From positions 62,001-126,000 of the forward strand of contig JALHNB010000014.1 of the NCBI GenBank assembly GCA_022843745.1: a stretch of 64,000 nt of DNA, given 5' to 3'. Source of the DNA: Anaerolineae bacterium (GTDB lineage Bacteria > Chloroflexota > Anaerolineae > Aggregatilineales > Phototrophicaceae). The translations under genes were made by a program, and so were the position numbers. The notes beneath the pieces are model-generated. The model was not told the DNA's origin and searched no databases. It saw only the letters and a list, made by a program, of their open reading frames with translations. Shown one piece after another: positions 48,824-60,318 of the stretch. The number at the start of each line of letters is the position of its first letter. Positions within the stretch are counted from its first letter, which is position 1.

Positions 48824-50923
48824 ATGGGGCAGCAGGGCGGCTTTTTGAATTGGTTGATCGGACTGCTGAGCGGCAAAAAACCACAACCGGAAGTCGTCAC
48901 GCCTGTTGAAACGGGTGAAATACTAGAAGAAGCGCCAGTCGCCAGCGAATCGAATCTCATGCCACCTGACGAACTGCTCGATCTTGAGTTTTCAGCCCAG
49001 GCAGTTGCTCCCCAAATTGTTACCCATGCACTGGTATTGCCCGATCAGAACTTTGCGGATTGGAATCGCGCCACCGAAGCCTATACCCAAAAATTCACGC
49101 GCGTAACCATCGTCCGTTCGCCATCCGGTAATGACCTCAATCGTTTTCGCAATGTTACCGCTGTGCAAGCACCCAATGTGTGGCTGAATAATAACGCCTT
49201 GCAACATATCCGGCGCGTGTATCCCAGTGTCGTGCGCGTTGATACGATTATTGCTCAAACGCCCGATCAGCTTAAGACTAAATTGCAATTGCGCATCAAC
49301 GCCAGTGATCGCTACGGCGAGAAGATGAACTCCGATAAACATATCAATGATCGGTTTGTCATTAGCTGGCCTTCGCTTGCAATGCCTGCGCGTGTGCCGC
49401 TGCCTTTTAATGCCGATATAAGTGGGCGGAAGCATGAAGGCATGGATATTTATGCGCCACCAGGAACGACAATACGCGCATCGGTTACGGGGACTGTGGC
49501 GCTGGTCGTCAATCAGCCAACTTTGCTCGGCTATGGCAAATATATTCAGATTAATGTACCTTTTGGCACGACCAGTTATCTGGTCACGCTGGCTCGGCTC
49601 ACGGATATTAAAGTCAAAAGCGGTCAAAAAGTCACGCCGAATCTTGTGATCGGCCTCTCCGATTCGCAAAGTATTAAACTGGTGGTTCAACAGCCGGGGG
49701 GCGGTTTGTCGGGTTATTATCTGCCAAACGTGGTAAACCCTACAGGCATGATTTACTGGGATAACCTGCGGCTGCAACCCACAGATAATAACTTGCGTAT
49801 CCGTGAAAAACCGGGTACGGAATTCCCAATTGTGACCAAGATCGGCACTTCTGACCGTGTGGATACTCTGGAAACGCATGGTCGCACATTGGTCAAGGTG
49901 GGACAAAACGAGGCATGGATTAATGTGCGTGCGCCTTCTGGGCAGACCGGATACGCTGCTGCCTGGTTTCTTGAAGCTATTTCACCAGACCTGGTCGACT
50001 CGGTGCGGATGCCAGGAGTCAACCTGGATGTGATGCACACCCTGGGAAAGCCGACCCCGGATCGGCTGGGAAATATAAGCTGGGTACGCCTCGCATATAA
50101 CGTTTCGTTTAACCCCAATAATGGCACTCATGGCAACACCAACCTCAACGCCACATACAGCCTGTATAAGCCCTATATCGAGCGCTATGCCCGCGCAGGC
50201 TACAAAGTCATGCTGGTTTTCACGCATCAGACTTATGGTGAAGGTGCGGGTTTTAATTGGAATCAGATGAACAGTGACCGCTGGCGCGCACTGACGACTA
50301 AATTTGTGGAGATGATTCGCGCGATTGCGGGTCAGTATGCCAATCAAAATCTGGTTCATGCCTATCAAATCTGGAATGAGCAGGATGCACAGCCAGGAGC
50401 CGGATCATCTGTACCCATGCCTGCCGGAAATTACGCTTTTATGCTTTCTGAGAGCATTCGCGCCATTCGCACGGTTGACACGAAGGTCAAGATTATCACG
50501 GGTGGTCACACAGGTGGGCCGGGGAACGGTTCGAACTATGCCCGCCAGACGATTGCAGCCCTACCGACCAATGTGCGCCCGGACGGGATCGCCACACATC
50601 CTTATGGACGCGGCCCCAATACCAGCTCGCCTTATGCAATTTTCGGACACATTGATGACGAAGTACGCGCTTTTACACAGATTATGCCCAGCAGACCAAT
50701 CTGGATTACGGAGTGGGGTGTTTTAGATCGTCCTAATGATTCGCCAGAAGATATTGCCAATTATGCAGGGCCGTTTTTGAATCACCTCAAAAAAAACTTT
50801 TCAACACAGGTGGAAACGGCGATCTGGTATGCCTGGGCGCAGGGGATGCACAATGGTTATGGATTAGTCGGGCCAGATGATAAGCCCCGCCAGCCGTTAT
50901 ATGACAAGATTTTGAAATCCTGA
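48824..50923 (+). CDS. Fusion of degenerate M23 peptidase, SH3 and glycoside hydrolase-like domains
   Basis: 699 residues. Residues about 195-305 resemble an M23/LytM peptidase (RKHEGMDIYAPPGTTIRASV). The first HxxxD zinc pair is partly kept, but the HxH motif is replaced (YLVTLARL), so it is probably inactive. An SH3b-type domain follows (about 322-385, LRIREKPGTEFPIVTKIG). The last 300 residues form a TIM-barrel glycoside hydrolase of clan A type: the acid/base Glu is in AYQIWNEQDA (about 517) and the nucleophile Glu in PIWITEWGVLD (about 628). No signal peptide or membrane helix is visible, which is unexpected for wall-directed domains. GAGGAG precedes the ATG. Confidence 0.75.
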   Translation: MGQQGGFLNWLIGLLSGKKPQPEVVTPVETGEILEEAPVASESNLMPPDELLDLEFSAQAVAPQIVTHALVLPDQNFADWNRATEAYTQKFTRVTIVRSPSGNDLNRFRNVTAVQAPNVWLNNNALQHIRRVYPSVVRVDTIIAQTPDQLKTKLQLRINASDRYGEKMNSDKHINDRFVISWPSLAMPARVPLPFNADISGRKHEGMDIYAPPGTTIRASVTGTVALVVNQPTLLGYGKYIQINVPFGTTSYLVTLARLTDIKVKSGQKVTPNLVIGLSDSQSIKLVVQQPGGGLSGYYLPNVVNPTGMIYWDNLRLQPTDNNLRIREKPGTEFPIVTKIGTSDRVDTLETHGRTLVKVGQNEAWINVRAPSGQTGYAAAWFLEAISPDLVDSVRMPGVNLDVMHTLGKPTPDRLGNISWVRLAYNVSFNPNNGTHGNTNLNATYSLYKPYIERYARAGYKVMLVFTHQTYGEGAGFNWNQMNSDRWRALTTKFVEMIRAIAGQYANQNLVHAYQIWNEQDAQPGAGSSVPMPAGNYAFMLSESIRAIRTVDTKVKIITGGHTGGPGNGSNYARQTIAALPTNVRPDGIATHPYGRGPNTSSPYAIFGHIDDEVRAFTQIMPSRPIWITEWGVLDRPNDSPEDIANYAGPFLNHLKKNFSTQVETAIWYAWAQGMHNGYGLVGPDDKPRQPLYDKILKS

Positions 50924-50956
50924 CAGCCGTTATATGACCGGGTTTTGAAATCCTGA
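50891..50956. repeat. 33-bp tandem duplication of a gene end
   Basis: The last ten codons and the TGA of the upstream gene (50891-50923) are repeated immediately after it (50924-50956) with three differences. The second copy is in frame but behind the stop codon and so is not translated. Confidence 0.85.
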
Positions 50957-50961
50957 ACATC

Positions 50962-50991
50962 AATTTGAGCAATTGGCTATTCGCTCAAATT
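50962..50991. terminator. Hairpin between convergent genes
   Basis: AATTTGAGC and GCTCAAATT form a perfect 9-bp stem around a 12-base loop. There is no long T-run, so this is a weak terminator call between the glycosidase-like gene and sixA. Confidence 0.45.
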
Positions 50992-50994
50992 CTG

Positions 50995-51474
50995 TCAGTC
51001 GTCAAGTGCGCCAAAAATTTTGGGTGCAATGAGCCAGATGAGTTGGCCGCGTAGAGGGGATGTCAGCATGACAGCATCGACTCGAGCCATACTCCCTTTT
51101 TTCATAGCGACATTGCCACCAGTAAGCTGCCCGACGATCTGGCTCATACTGGGTTCGTGACCAACAAACATGACTTCATCGGTATCGTTTAGCTCAGCGA
51201 TCAGGGTTTCGACAGCAGGGAGATTAAAATTGAAGTTTACGGCCTCATTCACTTCAACTTTTTCGCCTAATTCTTTGGCGATGATCTCAGCCGTATGCTG
51301 GGCGCGGATACGCGGGCTGGCGTAGATATGGGTTGGTTTAATGTGCAGGTTTGACAATACTTTCGCAGCGGTTTGGATACGCTCAATACCTTTTGGGGTT
51401 AATTTGCGCTCATGATCGCTGATGGCAGAGGAGATGTCCTCTGCTTCTCCGTGACGAAGAAAATAAAGTTTCAT
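50995..51474 (-). CDS. sixA: Phosphohistidine phosphatase SixA-type
   Basis: 159 residues of the histidine phosphatase (phosphoglycerate mutase-like) superfamily. The catalytic RHG is at residues 7-9 (MKLYFLRHGEAED), with the second Arg in ASPRIRAQHTAEI and the second His in VMFVGHEPSMSQIV. Size and motif order match SixA, which removes phosphate from phosphohistidine on relay proteins. The histidine kinase or PTS target is not in the window; the substrate is therefore by family only. Confidence 0.87.
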   Translation of the reverse strand: MKLYFLRHGEAEDISSAISDHERKLTPKGIERIQTAAKVLSNLHIKPTHIYASPRIRAQHTAEIIAKELGEKVEVNEAVNFNFNLPAVETLIAELNDTDEVMFVGHEPSMSQIVGQLTGGNVAMKKGSMARVDAVMLTSPLRGQLIWLIAPKIFGALDD

Positions 51475-51598
51475 TGATTTTTTACCCCTGCAAAAAAATT
51501 ACGAGATCAATTTCCTTTGAGGATAACACAAAACCAAGAACCATTCATGATATTTCACCGTATATGTGGAAAGTGGATCAGTAAGCAAGGAGATTTCT

Positions 51599-52819
51599 AT
51601 GGCAACCCAAGCACACGTTTATGATGTCTGGTCAGCGAAAACCCGTGCCAATCCCCAGGCGCTTTATGAGCAAATGCGGCACGAGACCCCGATTTATCGC
51701 TCAGTGGGGCCGCAGTCCGGCAATAATTTCTGGTTCATCACCCGTTATGATGACTGCATGACGGCTTTGAAAAATGACGAGAGGATCGGCAAGGAATTTC
51801 GCAAACACCTCCCGCCAGAGGTCAGTAACCATTGGGGGCCACCACCTGATCCCAACGATGTATTTGAGGTGATTAATCGCCATTTGCTGAATATTGACCC
51901 GCCCGATCATACTCGGCTGCGCGGATTAGTACACAAGGCGTTTACGCCCAGACGTATCGAAAACCTGCGCCCGCGCATCCAGCAGATTGCGGATGATTTG
52001 ATTGACGAGATGCAGGGTGCAAGCCGGGCTGATCTTATTAACGCCTTCAGTTTTCCGCTGCCAATTACGGTGATTGCCGAGATGTTGGGTATTCCCGCTT
52101 CGGATCGTGAAAAATTCCGCGATTGGACGCGCACGCTGTTGTTCGTGCCGGATGAAAGTGAGAATCGCCGTGCTGCGATGGAATTTGGCATGTATATGAG
52201 CAACATGATCGACGAGCGCCGCGAAAACCCCCAAGATGATGTGCTGAGTGGGCTGATCGAGGCTGAAGATTCTGGAGATCGCCTGGATCGGATGGAACTG
52301 CTGAGTATGATTTTCCTGCTGCTGGTGGCAGGTCATGAGACGACTGTGAATCTCATCGCGAACGGTATGCTGCTCCTGCTTCAACATCCTGACCAACTGG
52401 AAAAGCTCAAAAAAGACGCGACCTTGATTCGCCCGGCGGTTGAAGAAATTCTGCGCTATAACGGCCCGGTGGAGACGACGACTTTTCGTTGGGCGTTCGA
52501 AGATGTCGAAATTGGCGGTGTGACGATCCCGGCGGGGGATGTGGTGCTGCCCGCGCTGCTGGCGGCTAATCGTGACCCGGCCCATTTCGAGAATCCAAAT
52601 GTGTTTGATATCACGCGCGAAAATAACAAACACATCGCCTTTGGATTGGGGATTCATTATTGCGTTGGAGCGCCCCTGGCTCGTATGGAAGGCACTATCG
52701 CGATCAATACACTGCTAAAACGCTTGCCGAATTTGCAACTGGCGGTGGATGTCGATGATTTACAGTGGAATGAGAGCATCCTGCTGCACGGGATGAAAGA
52801 AATGCCTGTGACGTTCTAG
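51599..52819 (+). CDS. Cytochrome P450
   Basis: Soluble bacterial P450 of 406 residues. The oxygen-activating I-helix motif is LLVAGHETTVNL (about 242-252), the K-helix ExxR is EEILRYNGPVE (about 281), and the heme-binding loop is FGLGIHYCVGAPLAR with the thiolate Cys near 354. Near the N-terminus, the segment LLNIDPPDHTRLRGLVHKAFTPRRI (split around HTRLR) is typical of the CYP107-like actinobacterial group. AAGGAG lies about ten bases before ATG 51599; an in-frame ATG 33 bases earlier lacks one. No ferredoxin or ferredoxin reductase is adjacent, so the redox partners are encoded elsewhere. The substrate is unknown. Confidence 0.95.
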   Translation: MATQAHVYDVWSAKTRANPQALYEQMRHETPIYRSVGPQSGNNFWFITRYDDCMTALKNDERIGKEFRKHLPPEVSNHWGPPPDPNDVFEVINRHLLNIDPPDHTRLRGLVHKAFTPRRIENLRPRIQQIADDLIDEMQGASRADLINAFSFPLPITVIAEMLGIPASDREKFRDWTRTLLFVPDESENRRAAMEFGMYMSNMIDERRENPQDDVLSGLIEAEDSGDRLDRMELLSMIFLLLVAGHETTVNLIANGMLLLLQHPDQLEKLKKDATLIRPAVEEILRYNGPVETTTFRWAFEDVEIGGVTIPAGDVVLPALLAANRDPAHFENPNVFDITRENNKHIAFGLGIHYCVGAPLARMEGTIAINTLLKRLPNLQLAVDVDDLQWNESILLHGMKEMPVTF

Positions 52820-52832
52820 CGACAAATTTGTA

Positions 52833-53021
52833 GGGGCGACTCAGCGAGTCTCACGCATCAAAATAAGTCATAATGGTGCAAATTGTATGTCTTCTGACCC
52901 CCTCCGTCTGCCTGCGGCAGCCTCCTCCCCCGAATTCGGGGGAGGTTGGGTGGGGGTTTATGAGCGAGAAATCGCTTCCATTGAGGTCTATCTTGATGCT
53001 TGAGACTCGGCGAGTCGCCCC
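52833..53021. repeat. Long inverted repeat enclosing a second repeat
   Basis: A 29-base arm beginning GGGGCGACTCAGCGAGTC (52833-52861) is mirrored at 52993-53021 with three mismatches. Between the arms lie about 130 bases that include the NPTP-type repeat. The arms share words with the palindrome at 28119-28147. Confidence 0.75.
52896..52961. repeat. NPTP-type palindromic repeat (intergenic copy)
   Basis: It contains a perfect 22-bp palindrome centred on GAATTC (52924-52945) flanked by C-rich and G-rich tracts, and ends GGTTGGGTGGGGGTTTA. It is the non-coding relative of the insert inside priA. Confidence 0.75.
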
Positions 53022-53033
53022 TGCTTTGTGTGC

Positions 53034-54104
53034 TTAAAACTCCGATTTTGCCAGATATTCCGGGCTGCGCTGCTTCACGAATACCCGACCAATTTTCGGC
53101 TCATAGCCTTCAACCATCGGCTTAATCACGATGCCCTCGCGCAGACGGTCTGCCAACGCCGATTTGCCATTTGATGCCTCGCGCAGATCACGCCCATCCA
53201 GCCATGACCGCAGCGTCATGCCAACTGCCAGTACAGGGGCTGTTGATAGGTTATAACGTGCGGCATAATCCAGAAATCGAGCCGCATCAACGGGTGTACC
53301 GTTAACTTCAATATCAAACAGTCGCACCTCATGATTTTTCAGGCCATAGATGTTGCTCTGGATACCGGGGCCGAGCATTTCACCGCGCAGCGTGATCGCC
53401 TGAATCAGCGTATTACCCTCATCAGCGATCATTTCAGCCATCAATGTCTTCAGCGCTTCGTCCAAATTCTGGGTGCGAATCACTTTATACCAGTCATGTT
53501 CGCCGCCGGGAACAGGGATGATTCGGTAATTTCGCTGTGAAGCGATTAATTCGCCATCTCGGTAAAGTGTGGCTGACCAGTTCGAGCCTTCGAGTTTTTC
53601 AGTGATGTAGCAGGGCGAATCCATCAAATACTGATCGACAATGCCCACGAAATTTTGTGCGCTTTCGATGTCATAAGCACTCACCAGCCGGGGCAGCGGC
53701 GCAAGATTGCCCCATACCGACGGGATAATCGGCGCTTCGTATTTCGTCACACCGAGCGCTTCGGTCACATCGTCCCCAAGTCCAGCGTTATCGGAAATTG
53801 CGGGCGCAAGCTGTGCTGTGCTGCATACGATCCCTTGCGAGATATTGCCGCGCAGACGAACGGTTTTGACACGATTCTGTTCTTTTCCGGTCAGCTTTCC
53901 GGTCAGGTTCAGCTTTTCGCAAATCCAGGCGGGCAGCACACTGTCAACTGGGAAATAGATGACACTATCTCCCGGCTGAAAATCACCTTTGCCGACCACA
54001 AATTCATAGGCTTTACCTTCCAGTGAAGCCATTTCCAGGCGATCAGCATTGTCGTGCGGCCATATTCGGCCAATGCGCTCAACAGTGACGGCAAACGTAC
54101 TCAT
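53034..54104 (-). CDS. DraRnl-type ATP-dependent RNA ligase
   Basis: 356 residues resembling the Deinococcus radiodurans RNA ligase (DRB0094 family), which seals 3'-OH/5'-phosphate breaks. The N-terminal OB-like module is VERIGRIWPHDNADRLEMAS to GDSVIYFPVDSVLP. The nucleotidyltransferase motif I is EKLEGSN with the adenylated Lys170. Motif IV is REGIVIKP and motif V VFVKQRSPEYL. The ATG at 54104 begins the OB domain; the frame is open further upstream only because it runs through the adjacent Y RNA. The gene lies 22 bases beyond the 3' end of the last Y RNA and in the same orientation as rsr, which argues for an RNA repair role together with them. Confidence 0.88.
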   Translation of the reverse strand: MSTFAVTVERIGRIWPHDNADRLEMASLEGKAYEFVVGKGDFQPGDSVIYFPVDSVLPAWICEKLNLTGKLTGKEQNRVKTVRLRGNISQGIVCSTAQLAPAISDNAGLGDDVTEALGVTKYEAPIIPSVWGNLAPLPRLVSAYDIESAQNFVGIVDQYLMDSPCYITEKLEGSNWSATLYRDGELIASQRNYRIIPVPGGEHDWYKVIRTQNLDEALKTLMAEMIADEGNTLIQAITLRGEMLGPGIQSNIYGLKNHEVRLFDIEVNGTPVDAARFLDYAARYNLSTAPVLAVGMTLRSWLDGRDLREASNGKSALADRLREGIVIKPMVEGYEPKIGRVFVKQRSPEYLAKSEF

Positions 54105-54126
54105 GATTTTGTTCCTAATTATGCTG

Positions 54127-54286
54127 AAAAAAGTGGGCGGGCAAAGGGATTGAAATGGGAAATATTCTGCGCGGCTGCCAGTTTCGCCACCATCCCTCGG
54201 AGTGGGATGGGCAGGAGTCGAACCTGCACCGAAGTTGCCTTCGACAGAATCCCGATAACCCATCTACAGCGGCCCGCGCCACTTAA
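54127..54286 (-). ncRNA. Y RNA with permuted long-variable-arm tRNA module (Leu-like)
   Basis: About 160 nt. Ends pair as AAGTGG/CCACTT and CGGGC/GCCCG, and the Ro-binding signature GGGCCG then ATGGGTTATC is on the 5' strand. Inside, in permuted order, are a 5-bp hairpin CGAAG-GCAA-CTTCG (a class II variable arm), a T-arm GCAGG-TTCGACT-CCTGC, an acceptor strand CCATCCC that folds over a 7-base loop onto GGGATGG, and a Leu-type D-arm (GGTGGCGAAACTGGCAG). The anticodon arm is replaced by the Ro stem. The RNA ends in TTTTTT. Confidence 0.82.
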
Positions 54287-54293
54287 CGATGCC

Positions 54294-54409
54294 TGAAAGA
54301 AACAGGCAGACAAAAAGTTGAGGTGGGAGTTTTTACCCTCTTGCGAGAGTTCAAGGAGTCGAACCTTTGAAATCCAGATAACCCACATCTTCCGGCCCGC
54401 GCCGCTTTT
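54294..54409 (-). ncRNA. Y RNA with reduced tRNA module (T-arm and stub)
   Basis: About 115 nt. Closing stem GCGGGC/GTCTGC and the signature GGGCCG then TGTGGGTTATC pairing with CCCACCTC. The insert keeps a T-arm-like hairpin with loop TTCGACT (stem with one bulged A) and a short hairpin CTCT-CGCA-AGAG in place of the acceptor stem. No D-arm can be recognised. The 3' end is near TGTTTCTTT. Confidence 0.75.
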
Positions 54410-54417
54410 GATGCCTG

Positions 54418-54497
54418 AAAAAAGGTGGGCGGGCGAAGAATCGCACATGGGGGTAATCGTTGCAAGATAACCCATGCACAGCGGCCCGCGCCACCTT
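54418..54497 (-). ncRNA. Minimal Y RNA without tRNA module
   Basis: About 80 nt. The ends pair as AAGGTGG/CCACCTT and CGGGC/GCCCG. The Ro-binding signature is GGGCCG then GCATGGGTTATC, and GTGCATGGG pairs with CCCATGTGC. Only about 18 bases remain in the apical loop (around TTGCAAC). It starts 19 bases after the rsr stop codon and ends in TTTTTT. Confidence 0.75.
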
Positions 54498-54515
54498 ATA
54501 AAACCCTATAAAGTT

Positions 54516-56183
54516 CTAGATTTGACCACGCGCAAAGTCTGCAATTACACCTGGCGCAGCCGAGTCGAAACCGACAACGTCCATCATTCCGGCATCGTTC
54601 GGGTCGGCAATCGTGAAGCCATTGCTGGTCATCCCGACCACGACCAACTGCGCCGCGATTCCCATTTTATCACGGTAGTCGCGCAGTGCCTCTACCGGAT
54701 GCAGCGAGGGATTCGCATAAGTTTCGCTGTCGGTATAGATCACGAACGTGTCCACCGGTATCTTATGCTCCAGCGCATACAGCATCGGCTGGGCGCAGTC
54801 AGTACGTCCAAATGGCAGGCCATCCGTTGCCTTCACCACGTCGTCCAGACGCATCCGCGCTGAGATATTCAACGGCACGATCTTGTCCTGGAACGAGATG
54901 ATGCTGTATTGCGACTCGGTACGCGCTGTGACCATCGCCATCGCCGCGCTGCCATCACGCGGAGTCAACCCCGCTACACCCGCGATCATTCCCGTAGCCA
55001 TCGAGCCGGACACATCCAGCCCCAGCATCATGCGCTTGTTAGCGGGTTCGACGTTTTTGAACGCCAGCTCGAAAGCCTTGTCCAGCGCGTCCATGATGCG
55101 CGGTGTTGGTGTCCATTCCTGCTCTTTGGGAGCCGTGTAGACGTATCCGCCCCAACGATTGGTCTGTCCACGCAGGCTGTAGCCCATGGCATAGACTCGC
55201 AGCGCCGACAGCACAGCGATTGGATGCACGCGCGCCTTACGCAGCAAATCCGCATTTCCAAGCCGTTCGATGACGATTTTTTCCGATGCGCTCATCGGTG
55301 TGAGCAATCCCGCCCGCGACATCGCGCCCAGGCTGCGGATCATGGCTGTCATCGGCATTTTTTCCAACAATGCTTCCCAGACGGCGGCTTCTTTCAGCCA
55401 TTCCGTCGGCAGCGCCTCACGCGGCAGGTCGTACATAGCGATCAGCTTGAGAATCATGCTGACATCTTTCGCTTCCTGCGCACGCTCAAAGCCCCAGATG
55501 AAGGCCATCGCGTCATTTTCCGGCGTAGCGAGATCACGCGCCCATTCTGCTTCCTCGCGGCGCGTCACCCACTTGAAAATCGCGCCCTGCGTTTCGTCAG
55601 TGGGAGTCGGATGTGCCAATCGCATGACATCGGCATGAGTCCAGCCGTTGCGCTGGCGATATTTGACTGTTTGGTACGCCAGATCACGTGCATTCATAGC
55701 GGTGTACCATGCAGCCACACCCCGGCGCAGCCCACGACCCCATCCACGCAGCCCGTTAACATACTCGGCGAAGGCGAACAGGTGAGTCCCGGTGCGGCAA
55801 ATTTTCGGCAGCGCGTTCAAAGCCGCTTTGCGTGTAGCCGGGTCGCCATGACTGACTGCGAGAGCCAGCGCGAAAATTGCCGGATCATTTTTGGGCGCGC
55901 GGCCTTCCTGCGAAATCGCCAGAATTTCGTTGACGGCGCGTACACCATCTTCACGAATGCAGGCCAGGACGTTATTGGCGTTTTCGAGAGTCAGCGCTTT
56001 TTCATTGATGTAATACGTCCCGCCCTCTGACCCTAGCACCATAAATCGGGTCAGTCGCTGCCATTGATCGAGTGGGAAACTATACCCGCCCGCCGAGTTC
56101 GCGACTTGCGTTGAACCCGGAATCGGCATGGTCTGCGGCGTGTGCCGCCCGGACATGACGTTCGTTAAATATTTCTTTACCAC
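54516..56183 (-). CDS. rsr: TROVE domain protein, Ro60 orthologue
   Basis: Bacterial Ro protein of 555 residues. The HEAT-repeat TROVE ring covers about residues 20-370 (NSAGGYSFPLDQWQRLTRFMVLGSEGGTYY is split by WQRLTRF; later NALPKICRTGTHLFAFAEYV). A vWA domain follows with an intact MIDAS site (LDVSGSM near 389, FGRTDC, IYTDSE). Ro rings bind misfolded RNA in the cavity and Y RNAs on the surface, and in Deinococcus they gate PNPase. The start is a GTG at 56183 (MVKKYLTNVMSG) with AAAGGAGGT upstream; the open frame further up is Y RNA. A Y RNA precedes it and three follow. Confidence 0.95.
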   Translation of the reverse strand: MVKKYLTNVMSGRHTPQTMPIPGSTQVANSAGGYSFPLDQWQRLTRFMVLGSEGGTYYINEKALTLENANNVLACIREDGVRAVNEILAISQEGRAPKNDPAIFALALAVSHGDPATRKAALNALPKICRTGTHLFAFAEYVNGLRGWGRGLRRGVAAWYTAMNARDLAYQTVKYRQRNGWTHADVMRLAHPTPTDETQGAIFKWVTRREEAEWARDLATPENDAMAFIWGFERAQEAKDVSMILKLIAMYDLPREALPTEWLKEAAVWEALLEKMPMTAMIRSLGAMSRAGLLTPMSASEKIVIERLGNADLLRKARVHPIAVLSALRVYAMGYSLRGQTNRWGGYVYTAPKEQEWTPTPRIMDALDKAFELAFKNVEPANKRMMLGLDVSGSMATGMIAGVAGLTPRDGSAAMAMVTARTESQYSIISFQDKIVPLNISARMRLDDVVKATDGLPFGRTDCAQPMLYALEHKIPVDTFVIYTDSETYANPSLHPVEALRDYRDKMGIAAQLVVVGMTSNGFTIADPNDAGMMDVVGFDSAAPGVIADFARGQI

Positions 56184-56210
56184 TGGCACACCTCCTTTCG
56201 GCTGGACATC

Positions 56211-56354
56211 AAAAAAATGGCGGACAAAGATTGCATGTGGATGTTTTTGCTGCTCTACCAACTGAGCTACCATCTCCACAAAAGGGAGATGGGGAGGATT
56301 CGAACCTCCGACCCGCCGAGTTTGATCGATAACCCACACACGTCGGCCCGCTTG
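56211..56354 (-). ncRNA. Y RNA with permuted class I tRNA module, in the rsr leader
   Basis: About 144 nt. GCGGGC pairs with GTCCGC at the ends, and GTGTGTGGGT pairs with the strand ACATCCACATGC over ten positions; the Ro signature is GGGCCG then GTGGGTTATC. The permuted module has a T-arm (GGAGG-TTCGAAT-CCTCC), an 8-bp acceptor stem CCATCTCC/GGAGATGG closed by a 7-base loop, and a canonical D-arm (GCTC-AGTTGGTA-GAGC). It ends in seven T residues, then comes the rsr ribosome site. Confidence 0.85.
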
Positions 56355-56360
56355 AGAGTC

Positions 56361-56390
56361 AGAATATCATAAAAGATCATAAAATGTCAA
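56361..56390 (-). promoter_or_regulatory. Promoter of the Y RNA/rsr transcript
   Basis: On the minus strand a perfect TTGACA (56385-56390) is followed after 18 bases by TATTCT (56361-56366) with the extended TG two bases before it. The predicted start, near 56354, coincides with the 5' edge of the Y RNA stem. Confidence 0.7.
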
Positions 56391-56460
56391 TAGAGGTTAT
56401 GGTGGTTCAAATGTACAAAAATCTGTACAATTTTGTGCGATAAACCCCTCATTTTTGAGC

Positions 56461-56491
56461 TTGTCACAGCGTATGCTAAAAAGGCTATACT
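56461..56491 (+). promoter_or_regulatory. Possible promoter of the DUF4139 gene
   Basis: TTGTCA (56461-56466) and TATACT (56486-56491) are 19 bases apart, slightly long. The start codon at 56526 is 34 bases downstream. It is divergent from the Y RNA promoter. Confidence 0.4.
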
Positions 56492-56525
56492 GCCTTTTAT
56501 CGAAAAGAATGGATGGGAATTGAAA

Positions 56526-58532
56526 ATGAGTGAGCTTCCTGTACGCGAGATGGTTTTATACAAGCACGGTGTCGGCTTTTTTGTACGCGAGGGTGTTGTA
56601 GCAGGTGAGAATGCCGCGCTGACTTTCCGACAGGATGAAATCAACGATGTGCTAAAAAGCCTGGCTGTTTTCGATCAATCCGGTGGGCAGGTGTTGGGCA
56701 TCCATTACCAGACACCGATGGACAGGGAAGACCGTCTGGCGAACAGTTCGATTCGCCTCTCGACACAGGCCAGCCTCGTTGATTTGCTGCGCGACCTTCG
56801 CGGGCGGCGGGCATCGCTGGCCTTCGAGACAACACCGGGGACAACCGAGACTGTCACCGGGCGTGTGATCGGCATTGACCACCTGAATCAGCAGCAAAAA
56901 AATCTCGGTATGCTGCAAAATACCGATTCGCTGGTGACGATTCTGGCCGATGACGGGCAAGTGCGGGCATTCAGACTCGACATGCTGCGCTCGTTCCAGA
57001 TTCACGATACGCAGTCCAGCCACGACTTGAGCTATTTTCTCGACACCAGCATGAGCGAGGATACCCGCCGGATCGTCAACGTGCGTCTGAGCGAAGGCGA
57101 TCACCAACTGGTGGTCTACTATGTCGCGCCCAGCCCCACCTGGCGCGTGAGCTATCGCCTCGTCGCGGAAACCGACAAAGATGCTGAAACGGGTAAAGCG
57201 CTGATGCAAGGTTGGGGATTATTTGATAATCGCCTGGAAGAAGATTTGGAAGATGTCAAAGTGACCCTCGTCGCAGGACAGCCAATTTCCTTCATTTACG
57301 AGCTTTACGCCTCGCGTATCCCGCATCGCCCAACTGTGCAGGACGAATCGCGGGTCGCGCCGGGGCCGATTGAGTTCGCCGGAGCAATGAGCGATTTCCT
57401 GGAAGGCCAAACTATGGATTTAGAAGAGGCTGACGAAGTTCAATATTTCGCTGCCGAGCGACAAATGGCTCCATCTCGTGCAAGAATGATGGCGAAAGCC
57501 GCGCCAGCCCCCGCGATGAGTCGTGCGCAAATCGCTGCTTCCGCGCCGCCAAGTGCCGAAGCCAAAGATGCGGGTGAATTTTTCCAATATGCCGTAACCG
57601 CACCCGTAACCGTCAAACGCGGCGAATCGGCACTCGTGCCGATCATCGGCAGCGAAATCAGCTACAGCCGCGAACTGCTCTACAACGGCGCAAAATTGCC
57701 CACACATCCGGTTGCATCGCTGCGATTCATTAATAGCACGGGGCTAACGCTCGAACGCGGCCCGATCACAGTGGTCGAAAATGGCGATTATAAAGGTGAG
57801 GCCGTTGTTGCCTTCACCAAAGATGGCAATCAAGTTTACTTGCCCTACGCCGTCGAGTTGGGCGTGCGCATCACCGAAAATTATGAAAATAAGACCCAAA
57901 CGACAAGCCTGAGCATCCAAAACACCTATCTGGTTTATCTGGAATACGTGATTTCTGAGGCTACCTACACGCTCGAAAATACCGCCGCCAGGCCGCTGAC
58001 GGTCACAATTGAAGCGCCTATCATCAGCGATTACGAATTATTCGATACCCGCGCCGCCGATGTGACGGCGGCTACCGAACGGCGCTGGCGTGTCGATGTC
58101 CCGGCGCGTGGCAAAGCCGAATTTATCCGCAAGGAACGGCGTTTGTCGCGGCGTTATGAGGATTTGCGAAATCTGAACTACAAAAATTTGCAGCAGTTTC
58201 TCGCAAATCGCTGGTTGGACAAGTCAACTTTTCAACGCCTGACCGAAATGCTCGACACGATTCAGAAGGTCGCTGATGCCGGGTTACGAAAAAACCAGTT
58301 GAACGCCGAAAACGGAAATCTCTACAAGCAGCAGGAGCAGCTACGCGCGAATCTGGGCGTTCTCCAGCCTACAGGCCAGGAGGCAACTCTGCGCAATCGT
58401 ATCCTGAAGCAACTGGAATCGACTCAGAATCGTATCGAAGAAATTAACCGCCAACTTGACGAGGAAGACAAAAAAATCGCGCAGAATAACGACAAAGCCC
58501 AGAAAATTATCGACGGTCTCAACCAGAGTTAG
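56526..58532 (+). CDS. DUF4139 domain-containing protein
   Basis: 668 residues. The first part (VREMVLYKHGVGFFVREGVV, DEINDVLKSLAVFD) and the middle (VYYVAPSPTWRVSYRLV, EEDLEDVKVTLVAGQPISF) match the DUF4139 family of mostly beta proteins. A low-complexity Ala/Met/Pro segment lies near 310-360. A second beta region contains SLSIQNTYLVYLEYVISEATY. The C-terminal 110 residues form a coiled coil (QEQLRANLGVLQ, NRIEEINRQLDEEDKKI). No signal peptide or enzyme motif is evident. The ATG at 56526 is used because homology starts there; the open frame extends 93 bases upstream across the promoter. The function of the family is unknown. Confidence 0.85.
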   Translation: MSELPVREMVLYKHGVGFFVREGVVAGENAALTFRQDEINDVLKSLAVFDQSGGQVLGIHYQTPMDREDRLANSSIRLSTQASLVDLLRDLRGRRASLAFETTPGTTETVTGRVIGIDHLNQQQKNLGMLQNTDSLVTILADDGQVRAFRLDMLRSFQIHDTQSSHDLSYFLDTSMSEDTRRIVNVRLSEGDHQLVVYYVAPSPTWRVSYRLVAETDKDAETGKALMQGWGLFDNRLEEDLEDVKVTLVAGQPISFIYELYASRIPHRPTVQDESRVAPGPIEFAGAMSDFLEGQTMDLEEADEVQYFAAERQMAPSRARMMAKAAPAPAMSRAQIAASAPPSAEAKDAGEFFQYAVTAPVTVKRGESALVPIIGSEISYSRELLYNGAKLPTHPVASLRFINSTGLTLERGPITVVENGDYKGEAVVAFTKDGNQVYLPYAVELGVRITENYENKTQTTSLSIQNTYLVYLEYVISEATYTLENTAARPLTVTIEAPIISDYELFDTRAADVTAATERRWRVDVPARGKAEFIRKERRLSRRYEDLRNLNYKNLQQFLANRWLDKSTFQRLTEMLDTIQKVADAGLRKNQLNAENGNLYKQQEQLRANLGVLQPTGQEATLRNRILKQLESTQNRIEEINRQLDEEDKKIAQNNDKAQKIIDGLNQS

Positions 58533-58588
58533 CGATTTGAACCTACCCGATTAGCGGCAAGTAAAAGCAGTAAATAAGGATTTTCACG

Positions 58589-59713
58589 ATGAACAAATTA
58601 TTGCTTTTCTTCGCGCTGATCGGGCTATTTTTAATTCCGGCCTCCTCGAATCAGGCGCAGGCTTGTGCTGAGGGTGAGATGATCGTTAACGGCGTGTGTG
58701 GTGATGCTTCGCTGGATTCGCTGAATGCGGGCTGGAATAAGATCGAGCCGGGCGGCGAAACGATGTGCGCACATGGAACACCCTACAGCTATTGGGTGCG
58801 CCCCGGTGCGCGTGATGATCTGCTGGTCTATATGGAGGGCGGTGGTGGCTGCTGGAATGCCGCGACCTGCCGCGATGATGGTCGCGAATTTAACGGCTTT
58901 TACGACAGTCGTATCACCGCGAGTGATAATCCAGCCTTTCGCGATGGTATCTTAAACATGGAGAACCCTGAAAATCCGTTTATGGATTACACGACAGTTT
59001 ACGCCCCGGTCTGCACGGGGGATGTCCATTGGGGCAATAGTGTTCACACCTATGACGACGAGGTGACGATCAATTTTAAGGGCTTCGTCAACACGTCGGC
59101 GGCGCTGGATTGGGCTTACGAGAATGCCCCTGAACCCGACTCTGTTTTTGTGACCGGATGCAGCGCGGGCAGCACCGGGTCGATTTTGCATACACCCTAT
59201 ATCATCGCGCAGTATCCCGAAACGCCTGTCTACCAGTTTGGCGATTCCCTCTCGCTGATTTTCACTGGCCCGGTTGATCTGCAAGTCGATTGGCACGCGC
59301 ACGATAATTTTGCGCAGTGGATTCCGGCGCTGGCAGAAATGCAGCCAACCGATTGGACGATGGCGAAAATGTACGCAGCAACAGCCAATTTCTACCCTGA
59401 TTATACCTTTTCGCAGTACAACTCGATTCGGGATAATGTGCAGGTGTTTTTCACTTACCCACTTGGCGGCGGCAATGGGGATGACTGGGCAAAGCTGCTC
59501 GACGCACATATCGCCGAAATTCAGCAGAACGCGCCAAATTATCGCTCCTATACCGCTGGTGGCGAGCAGCACTGCCTCACACCGCGCCCGGATTTTTATA
59601 CCTATACCATAGATGGCGTGCGCCTACGCGATTGGGTCGCGGATATAGCCAGTGGAAAAGAGGTCGAATCGCTGCACTGCGCCGACTGTGAACGGGCGGA
59701 AATCAGCCGTTAA
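58589..59713 (+). CDS. Pectinacetylesterase (Notum) family secreted hydrolase
   Basis: 374 residues with a signal peptide (about 1-24, ending NQAQA). The alpha/beta-hydrolase of the pectinacetylesterase family is recognised from the oxyanion-region sequence LLVYMEGGGGCWNAATC, the nucleophile elbow VTGCSAGSTGS (Ser near 192) and the catalytic His in GGEQHCLTPRP (near 328). Several Cys residues suggest disulfides. Family enzymes remove acetyl or acyl esters from polysaccharides or proteins; a plant pectin substrate is not implied in this organism. AAGGA precedes the ATG. Its end overlaps the convergent P460 gene by four bases. Confidence 0.9.
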   Translation: MNKLLLFFALIGLFLIPASSNQAQACAEGEMIVNGVCGDASLDSLNAGWNKIEPGGETMCAHGTPYSYWVRPGARDDLLVYMEGGGGCWNAATCRDDGREFNGFYDSRITASDNPAFRDGILNMENPENPFMDYTTVYAPVCTGDVHWGNSVHTYDDEVTINFKGFVNTSAALDWAYENAPEPDSVFVTGCSAGSTGSILHTPYIIAQYPETPVYQFGDSLSLIFTGPVDLQVDWHAHDNFAQWIPALAEMQPTDWTMAKMYAATANFYPDYTFSQYNSIRDNVQVFFTYPLGGGNGDDWAKLLDAHIAEIQQNAPNYRSYTAGGEQHCLTPRPDFYTYTIDGVRLRDWVADIASGKEVESLHCADCERAEISR

Positions 59714-60318
59714 AATCCTGTTTCTTCGGGGCAGGCGATGCGCTCGGAGAGGTTACACAAAAAATATTGAATCTCGCCGCTGCTGGAAAACCGCGCGAGC
59801 TGGCGGTAGCTGTAGGTGAAATCGGTGCTGACCTGGACTTGATGGCAGTTGAAACAGGCATTCAAGTCCTCGTCGAAGGCTGTACCATCGGGGTTAAACG
59901 AGCCGAAATTCCATTGGCCGACGCGGAGGCTGCTCAAAAAATCAGCATCCGTCCAATCGGAGCGCTTGTGAGCGATGTGAAAATTCTCGAACGGCGCGTC
60001 CTTGATATAGCGCCCCTGCTCATCCAGAAGCAGATTACCCTCGGCATCGCGACTGGCGTAATAGCCGTCGATGATGATGACCGTGTTATTCGGGAGCGTC
60101 GAGCCGGGTTGAAAGGCTTCGAAGGCGCTGCGATTAATAAACAGATCGCGTATTTTGCCGTCGGTGCGGTCAACACGGGCGTATTGCACGAAATCGTCGG
60201 GATAATTGGCCGGAAACGTGACTCCTGGCTCTCGCGAAACAACTTCCGAAGCGCAGCCAACGATCAAAAAGCAGAAAAAGCAGCAGATCAGCGCATAGGT
60301 TTTATAAAACATGGGCAA
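59710..60318 (-). CDS. Cytochrome P460 family c-type heme lipoprotein
   Basis: 202 residues. The signal peptide ends in a lipobox (FLIVGC, Cys22). The cytochrome P460 domain is suggested by FPANYPDDFVQYARVDRTDGKIRDLF at the start (split at FVQYARV) and by the sequence around WNFGSFNPDG. One heme c site is present, CFNCH (Cys155, Cys158, His159). P460 proteins oxidise hydroxylamine or nitrogen oxides in some bacteria, but many homologues are uncharacterised. It is probably anchored outside the membrane. It overlaps the convergent esterase gene at its 3' end and has no operon partner. Confidence 0.85.
   Translation of the reverse strand: MPMFYKTYALICCFFCFLIVGCASEVVSREPGVTFPANYPDDFVQYARVDRTDGKIRDLFINRSAFEAFQPGSTLPNNTVIIIDGYYASRDAEGNLLLDEQGRYIKDAPFENFHIAHKRSDWTDADFLSSLRVGQWNFGSFNPDGTAFDEDLNACFNCHQVQVSTDFTYSYRQLARFSSSGEIQYFLCNLSERIACPEETGF

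What the first reader, a model, noticed from the sequence alone, without database searches (positions are those of the whole stretch)
53034..56390. Compact Ro60 / Y RNA / RNA ligase module with four Y RNAs
One promoter is followed by Y RNA, rsr (Ro60), three more Y RNAs and a DraRnl-type RNA ligase, all on the minus strand. The Ro signature (GGGCCG then TGGGTTATC) is seen in all four RNAs with closing stems. Known bacterial loci usually have one or two Y RNAs, and the Salmonella rsr-yrl operon is linked to RtcB/RtcA. Here the sealing enzyme is instead of the 3'-OH/5'-P type. This suggests an RNA surveillance and repair unit in Chloroflexota with an expanded RNA set.
Basis: partly seen in the sequence, partly recalled or inferred. 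Interest (0 to 1): 0.92.

Follow-up and report, generated by a model that had tools for sequence, protein, structure and literature searches.

The report
Ro60 operon with Y RNA array
A bacterium carries an operon for the RNA-handling protein Ro60, four small Y RNAs that partly imitate tRNA, and an RNA-sealing enzyme; in its relatives such Y RNA sets can be larger, and a few of these RNAs copy short, critical pieces of ribosomal RNA, which points to a system that displays look-alikes of the protein-making machinery.

Summary
In detail: on the minus strand lie a sigma70-like promoter, Y1, Ro60 (TROVE plus vWA), Y2-Y4 and a DraRnl-type ligase. Y1 and Y4 are circularly permuted tRNA mimics (class I; class II, closest to own tRNA-Leu), Y2 has no module, Y3 only a T-arm. 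Comparative evidence backs the stems; Y3 is weak on its own fold.

Four Y RNAs is not exceptional: by a conservative count 10 of 63 Ro loci outside the order have four or more, and one relative has ten. The ligase linkage is seen only here: 3 of 23 searched genomes have such a ligase, only this one next to Ro.

The surprise lies in relatives. Four Y RNAs (three Chloroflexota, one Armatimonadota) open with 23S helix 69 sequence and two (two families) with the sarcin-ricin loop, directly behind the Ro-binding core. In 154 genomes of the order each pattern occurs twice, only in Ro arrays. Some others carry anticodon loops identical to real tRNAs. My bolder reading: Y RNA arrays present mimics of translation hot spots, as baits or decoys. 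The mimicry is shown by sequence; folding predictions do not support it strongly, and function is inferred.

The parts
56361..56390 (-). sigma70-like promoter: -35 TTGACA, -10 TATTCT (18-nt spacer, TG before it) or GATATT (16)
   Evidence: a similar promoter layout stands before the Ro/Y arrays of relatives
56394..56409 (-). operator-like repeats TGAACC (-19) and TAACCT (-9, one mismatch to the repeat form), ten bases apart, just upstream of the -35
   Evidence: a TGAMCY repeat at exactly -19 in 11 of 15 arrays, at least two repeats within 45 nt in 10 of 15, the window itself having only one exact copy
56211..56356 (-). Y1 RNA: core GGGCCG...TGGGTTATC, permuted class-I tRNA-like module (T-arm, acceptor CCATCTC/GAGATGG, D-arm), U-rich end
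   Evidence: YrlA 47.9 bits; z -3.09
54516..56183 (-). Ro60 (Rsr) gene, 555 aa, GTG start behind AAAGGAGG
   Evidence: D390, S392, S394 of the MIDAS motif among the invariant columns
54418..54497 (-). Y2 RNA: core and stems only, no effector module; long outer stem ending in a U tract
   Evidence: z -4.30
54298..54408 (-). Y3 RNA: T-arm-like hairpin and one more hairpin; weakest of the four
   Evidence: z -1.05
54127..54286 (-). Y4 RNA: permuted class-II tRNA-like module (variable arm, T-arm, acceptor CCATCCC/GGGATGG, D-arm), nearest own tRNA-Leu(GAG)
   Evidence: YrlA 26.9 bits; z -3.12
53034..54104 (-). DraRnl-type (Rnl5) ATP-dependent RNA ligase, 356 aa, with KLEGSN and EGIVIK motifs (motif names recalled)

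Best explanation
This is a Ro60 ribonucleoprotein operon. Ro60 binds each Y RNA through the shared lower stem and core (inferred from homology and the conserved core). The rest of the Y RNA is an interchangeable effector module: a class-I tRNA mimic (Y1), a class-II, Leu-like tRNA mimic (Y4), a T-arm (Y3), or nothing (Y2, probably a pure gate on the Ro60 ring). The modules bring enzymes that act on tRNA or rRNA to Ro60, or occupy them, so that Ro60 can sort damaged or misfolded translation RNAs for decay or repair. In this genome a DraRnl ligase has joined the operon and would reseal 3'-OH/5'-P breaks. The protein families, the RNA anatomy and the gene order are shown here; Ro binding, recruitment and sealing are inferred.
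For: Protein families. Y RNA core and stems: among 197 Y RNAs of Ro loci the third base of GGNCG and the opposite base, a pair not used to select them, is C-G in 116, T-A in 43 and something else in 38. True arms pair better than arms swapped between loci (score of at least 15 in 115 of 197 against 34 of 985), though the 197 had been selected for a stem score of at least 12.4. 20 of 36 consensus pairs with double-sided changes. A T-arm in 86 of 197 modules, T-arm and D-arm in 35 of 197. A similar promoter layout in most arrays examined. Precedent: passages in PMC8394870 (YrlA modified by DusA and TruB; Rsr and PNPase joined by the Y RNA) and PMC7790460 (Ro/Y/RtcB operon switched on by tRNA fragments).
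Against: No expression or binding data. Y3 folds hardly better than shuffles, and my two-stem scan does not separate Y2, Y3 or Y4 from shuffles. The ligase link is found in one genome only, so a shared function of Ro and ligase rests on n = 1. U tracts follow the stems of Y2 and Y4, so transcription may stop before the ligase.
Confidence: 0.62

Rival explanations
1. Decoy panel: the Y RNA modules of these arrays copy the sites where ribonuclease toxins strike (tRNA bodies, anticodon loops, sarcin-ricin loop, helix 69) and draw the toxins off or report the cut; a ligase reseals the decoy or the true target.
For: Sarcin-ricin loop in two Y RNAs and helix 69 in four; anticodon loops identical to those of own tRNAs for Asn, Gln, Leu(CAA) and Tyr; PMC7790460 (passage) already suggests that the YrlA tRNA domain could competitively inhibit an anticodon nuclease. 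That the copied sites are toxin targets is recalled knowledge.
Against: The window's own four Y RNAs hold no rRNA copy that I found. RNAfold gives the helix 69 stem a probability of only 0.14-0.31 in the three that could be folded and the sarcin-ricin closing pair 0.09-0.14. PADLOC finds nothing for Ro or ligase. No toxin was identified. The number of anticodon-arm-like hairpins is not clearly above shuffles once T-arms are set aside.
Confidence: 0.3
2. Modification-enzyme baits: the modules are substrates for tRNA/rRNA modifying enzymes (TruB, Dus, RluD, TlyA, TGT), which are thereby recruited to, or titrated by, Ro60.
For: YrlA is modified by DusA and TruB (PMC8394870, passage). All four helix 69 modules keep the bases that match U1911, U1915, U1917 and C1920 (sequences; E. 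coli numbering and enzymes recalled).
Against: The sarcin-ricin loop has no bacterial modification enzyme that I recall, so this does not explain the two SRL modules. No modification data.
Confidence: 0.3
3. The ligase is a chance neighbour: an independent repair gene that landed behind the array and only shares its transcript, if that.
For: Of 23 genomes searched 3 have the ligase and 1 has it next to Ro. The 54% identical copy in G125 is on another contig, with no Y RNA found in the 15.5 kb fetched around it.
Against: Same strand, 22 bases between the end of Y4 and the ligase start codon, no promoter called between them. In G125 the two contigs could still lie close in the finished genome.
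Confidence: 0.45
4. The longer open frames are the genes: the Ro frame open from 56339 (607 aa) and the ligase frame open from 54263 (409 aa) would turn Y1 and Y4 into coding sequence.
For: The frames are open.
Against: The Ro start at 56183 fits those of relatives and follows AAAGGAGG; the ligase family match begins at residue 8 of the short form; RNA stems with double-sided changes cover the Y1 extension.
Confidence: 0.02
5. The helix 69 and sarcin-ricin matches in relatives are chance or assembly debris.
For: By plain BLAST against shuffles the first two hits were marginal: 10 of 200 shuffle rounds reached score 18. In one search only L053 and L139 stand out by score; L043 and L044 (15) and L049 (14) rank among unrelated hits of 14-16. 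L139 has a run of N inside the match. rRNA 12-mers also follow 7 of 5566 unrelated GTTWY sites.
Against: They follow 5 of 543 Y-core-like sites (Fisher one-sided 0.0025), all five on only two 23S places, whereas the 7 background hits fall on 6 places; L053 matches 30 of 30 bases; L043 and L044 are diverged (21 of 24) yet in the same place behind the core; in 154 genomes of the order both patterns occur twice each, only in Ro arrays.
Confidence: 0.07

Closest known systems
Bacterial Ro60/Y RNA operons (Deinococcus rsr and Y RNA, RYPER; Salmonella rsr-yrlBA-rtcBA)
   Same: Ro60 with TROVE and vWA domains beside Y RNAs that share the Ro-binding core; tRNA-like module permuted as in YrlA (full-length alignment to its model)
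   Different: Four Y RNAs with different modules; DraRnl ligase instead of RtcB/RtcA; up to ten Y RNAs in relatives; rRNA-like modules in some relatives
Rfam RF02553 YrlA
   Same: Y1 and Y4 align over the full model length
   Different: Both score below the gathering threshold; Y2 and Y3 are not matched
Rfam RF01656 nematode stem-bulge RNA (Y RNA homologue)
   Same: Module-less Y RNAs of two relatives score 42.9 bits, above its gathering score of 38
   Different: Bacterial; no match of window 50000-60000 to it at E up to 1
DraRnl / Rnl5 RNA ligase family (TIGR02306)
   Same: Near full-length match above cut-off; closest solved relative by sequence is Naegleria RNA ligase
   Different: Stands beside Ro60, not so in the 22 other genomes searched

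Membership tests
Ro60 / Rsr | TROVE domain and vWA domain with MIDAS motif DxSxS | tested here: met
Ro60 / Rsr | NCBIfam Rsr equivalog cut-off (900 bits) | tested here: not met
   545.7 bits over 5-555; it is a divergent homologue, 407.4 bits to the solved Rsr chain 2nvo_A (that this chain is from Deinococcus is recalled). Filed as a Ro60 homologue, not as an Rsr equivalog
Ro60 / Rsr | Binds Y RNA | not testable with these tools
   needs pull-down
Bacterial Y RNA | Ro-binding core and two stems next to a Ro gene, with covariation | tested here: met
   for the set; of the window's four, Y1, Y2 and Y4 fold well against shuffles and Y3 does not
Bacterial Y RNA | At least one Y RNA of the locus has a tRNA-like module | tested here: met
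   Y1 and Y4; the criterion itself is recalled from Chen et al. 2014, not held in the library
Rfam YrlA (RF02553) | Gathering score 69 bits | tested here: not met
   47.9 and 26.9 bits
DraRnl / Rnl5 ligase | TIGR02306 above cut-off, OB domain plus nucleotidyltransferase | tested here: met
   169.1 bits against 151.15; OB-fold and RNA_ligase domains
Rtc RNA-repair operon | RtcB/RtcA with RtcR next to Ro/Y | tested here: not met
   The five proteins scanned are Ro60, the ligase, a P450, a 699-aa protein without a Pfam match and a SixA-type phosphatase; genes further away were not scanned

The most novel reading that the evidence does not exclude
In this order of Chloroflexota, and at least once in Armatimonadota, Y RNAs form arrays that act as a display panel: each RNA holds the Ro60-docking core and, in many cases, one copy of a functional hot spot of the translation apparatus (tRNA bodies in permuted or normal order, single anticodon arms, 23S helix 69, sarcin-ricin loop). 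Ro60 plus this panel would bait or decoy the enzymes, toxins or modification factors that act on those hot spots, making Ro60 a modular adaptor for translation-RNA damage rather than a single degradation machine.
Probability: 0.42. Interest if true: 0.88.

Novelty: new variant of a known kind. Interest (0 to 1): 0.66.

Why it matters
What Y RNA effector modules are for is an open question; the passages I saw in papers describe only tRNA mimicry in bacteria. Y RNAs that carry helix 69 or the sarcin-ricin loop right behind the Ro-docking core would show that the module is a slot for several translation RNAs, and would let the bait and decoy models be tested directly with purified RNAs and known enzymes. 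The window's operon adds a case in which the sealing enzyme next to Ro is a 3'-OH/5'-P ligase.

Tried and rejected
BLAST of modules against own 16S/23S with a first, wrongly oriented 23S locus gave nothing; repeated in the right orientation but with roughly cut rRNA ends, where the two hits were only marginal against shuffles. Phylum-wide pattern searches for SRL or helix 69 behind GGTTAT (400 genomes each, drawn evenly, few from this order) gave matches in 2 and 3 genomes, none of them a Y RNA on inspection. Viral collection: 0 helix 69 hits, 4 SRL hits, none a Y RNA by eye and none with Ro in the fetched stretch. A fifth exact core in the window's genome (G000:C35) has no convincing stem and was not counted. 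A second operator-like site in that genome (C48) lies among what look by eye like phage-tail or contractile-tail genes and was taken as chance. Anticodon-arm-like hairpins: 82 hits against a shuffle mean of 4.8 (maximum 12), but most are T-arms; nine distinct non-T-arm loops remain by my reading, of which 4 equal own anticodon loops; eight of the nine were looked up by script, the ninth (in Y1's acceptor loop) is absent from the printed list. The Y RNA counter is conservative and counts only 2 of the window's 4; the looser one appears to include false hits inside genes. In one search the loci were assigned to the order through contigs seen in the genome searches, except L072, which I placed there unchecked. 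The control promoter count (12 of 103) includes arrays themselves. L040-L042 were left out of the 15 promoters as near copies of L038. The tmRNA-like hit at L049:9192 was not resolved. Chen 2014 on bacterial Y RNAs and Burroughs and Aravind 2016 on RNA repair are not held and are only recalled.
Full report
WHAT IS IN THE WINDOW. On the minus strand, in order of transcription: a promoter-like site (TTGACA at 56390), Y1 (56356-56211), Ro60 (56183-54516), Y2 (54497-54418), Y3 (54408-54298), Y4 (54286-54127) and a DraRnl-type RNA ligase (54104-53034). Ro60 has both Pfam domains of the family and matches solved Ro60/Rsr chains over nearly its whole length (E 7.5e-121 to 1.2e-125). The ligase passes the TIGR02306 cut-off. 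The four Y cores are the only exact ones in the window. A relaxed search of 50001-60000 found no further convincing Y RNA; its two extra minus-strand hits and one plus-strand hit were not followed, and it did not itself report Y4.

ARE THE Y RNAs REAL? Rfam YrlA aligns along its whole length with Y1 and Y4, but under the gathering score. Y1, Y2 and Y4 fold better than 198, 200 and 199 of 200 dinucleotide shuffles, Y3 only better than 170 of 200. My ungapped two-stem scan separated only Y1 from shuffles; in Y2, Y3 and Y4 the predicted outer stem is interrupted by one unpaired base, which that scan cannot follow. Comparative evidence is stronger: in 197 Y RNAs of Ro loci the third base of GGNCG pairs with its opposite as C-G 116 times and T-A 43 times, other combinations 38, although this pair was not used for selection. 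Relatedness of the sequences was not corrected for. In 13 aligned permuted class-I Y RNAs, 20 of 36 consensus pairs show changes on both sides.

ANATOMY OF THE MODULES. Y1 runs T-arm, acceptor 3' strand, loop, acceptor 5' strand, D-arm: a circularly permuted class-I tRNA. Y4 adds a variable-arm hairpin and is nearest own tRNA-Leu(GAG) (score 31, next best tRNA-Leu(CAG) at 26, then a tRNA-Val at 25): a class-II mimic. Y1 has no single nearest tRNA (two tRNA-Arg at 31, tRNA-Lys 30.5). Y3 keeps a T-arm-like hairpin. Y2 has nothing between its stems. ARAGORN calls no tRNA in the window.

RELATIVES. 19 of 101 genomes, the window's own included, have a Ro homologue. Array sizes within the order reach ten (L040). 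Conservative counts in 63 Ro loci outside the order: 0 in 13, 1 in 17, 2 in 16, 3 in 7, 4 in 6, 5 in 2, 6 in 2; the same count on the opposite strand of all 81 loci gives 0 in 79 and 1 in 2. The ten with four or more are titled as Armatimonadota (by family name), Verrucomicrobia, Proteobacteria, Gemmatimonadetes, and one only as 'bacterium'. Contig ends cut some loci. So four Y RNAs is not rare. The 80 named loci are the best-scoring of 230 relatives found, not a random sample of Ro loci.

THE LIGASE. I searched 23 genomes of the order (22 with a Ro hit or 33 and G123 with only a Y core; the four genomes with only weak Ro hits were not included). Three carry TIGR02306: the window's genome, G125 and G005 (the last below the family cut-off), and only the window's lies beside Ro. 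The G125 copy is 54% identical over the full length, the G005 copy 30%. Neither has a Y RNA in the fetched surroundings at the score used. The window's ligase has no tblastn hit in 92 other stretches.

RIBOSOMAL RNA COPIES IN Y RNAs OF RELATIVES. I compared 93 fetched stretches (89 with Ro, taken as 3.5 kb on both sides of it; 4 without, taken whole; three are second fetches of the same locus; 552 kb) with own 23S and 16S, the latter with some flanking DNA. The three best hits are all helix 69 and the stretch behind it: L053 (Armatimonadota) 30 of 30, L139 (G125) 23 of 23 on each side of a run of N. L043 (G047) and L044 (G113) match the same place at 21 of 24; by score (15) they rank among unrelated hits of 14-16, so their case rests on position. 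All four start straight after GTTAT (GTTTT in L044). Outer and inner stems of L053, L044 and L043 pair by eye, giving RNAs of 186, 201 and 204 nt. The sarcin-ricin loop AGTACGAGAGGA sits 1-2 bases behind the core in L049 (G005, family f1) and in L142, the same locus as L092 (G152, family f7). Control: an rRNA 12-mer within three bases follows 5 of 543 Y-core-like sites, all five on these two 23S places (L043 does not reach a 12-mer), but 7 of 5566 other GTTWY sites, on six places, two of the seven being the same stretch inside the Ro gene (Fisher one-sided 0.0025). In 154 genomes of the order the helix 69 pattern occurs twice and the SRL pattern twice, every time in a Ro array; the L044 variant escapes that pattern. 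Against this: the first shuffle test was only marginal, and RNAfold gives these local hairpins low probability (L139 could not be folded), though it does not model the non-canonical pairs of the sarcin-ricin loop. None was found beside Ro in the window.

ANTICODON ARMS. Some module hairpins carry a seven-base loop identical to an anticodon loop of the window genome's own tRNAs: Asn(GUU) in L038 and L039, Gln(UUG) in L040 and L041, Leu(CAA) in L044, Tyr(GUA) in L051. These are 4 of nine distinct non-T-arm loops; the number of such hairpins is itself not clearly above shuffles. Two relatives carry tRNA in normal order in their arrays, by eye inside a Y RNA (L043:8057, L047:4312; Rfam tRNA 36.8 and 38.3 bits).

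REGULATION. In 15 promoters of Ro/Y arrays (chosen by me) a TGAMCY repeat stands at exactly -19 from the -35 in 11, and at least two stand within 45 nt in 10; the window has one exact and one near copy. L049, L141 and L142 lack the pattern at these places and L070 has it shifted. In four whole genomes the strict form occurs once at a Ro locus and once elsewhere. A dedicated regulator is possible; it was not identified.

MECHANISM. Shown: families, anatomy, gene order, sequence mimicry. From passages in PMC8394870, PMC8058203 and PMC4726728: Y RNA binds Ro60 by its lower stem, gates it and tethers PNPase; YrlA is modified by tRNA enzymes. PMC7790460 (passages) suggests that the YrlA tRNA domain might inhibit an anticodon nuclease. 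PMC7824862 (passage) calls TROVE proteins a platform for RNA repair. Inferred: that array modules are chosen to engage factors acting on tRNA, anticodon loops, helix 69 and the SRL. Bait and decoy models stay open.

LITERATURE. Searches for Y RNA with sarcin-ricin and with helix 69, rRNA mimic or 23S rRNA listed no paper whose title or abstract start showed such Y RNAs; I opened passages of PMC8394870 and PMC8058203, where those terms stand apart from the Y RNA passages. The key survey of bacterial Y RNAs (Chen 2014) is not held, so absence from print is not shown.

VERDICT. A sound observation of a known kind of system, with an unusual and so far unique ligase partner; the wider array family, with ribosomal RNA mimicry, is the part that would surprise a specialist.

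Noticed in passing
L053:4441-4626 (+), L139:6866-7144 (-, with a run of N), L043:8322-8525 (+), L044:4533-4733 (+): Y RNAs that open with 23S helix 69 sequence directly behind the Ro core; about 190-200 nt long where complete
   Followed up: partly
L049:8275-8346 (+), L142:6081-6147 (+): Y RNAs that hold the sarcin-ricin loop sequence directly behind the Ro core
   Followed up: partly
window 56394-56409 and relatives: TGAMCY repeats ten bases apart upstream of the -35 of most Ro/Y arrays examined in the order; regulator unknown
   Followed up: partly
L005:1418-1483 and L003:1419-1484 (-): Module-less bacterial Y RNAs score above the gathering threshold of the nematode stem-bulge RNA family RF01656
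   Followed up: no
L049:9192-9279 (+): tmRNA-like tRNA domain (39.8 bits, below the threshold) just downstream of a Y RNA array
   Followed up: no
L138:1323 (+): Possible Y RNA away from the Ro contig in G005, next to a tRNA-Arg gene called by ARAGORN
   Followed up: no
window 54288-54301 and 54410-54423 (-): A 14-base spacer (TTTCAGGCATC within it) recurs between Y2/Y3 and Y3/Y4 at 93% identity, a sign of tandem duplication or of a processing site
   Followed up: no
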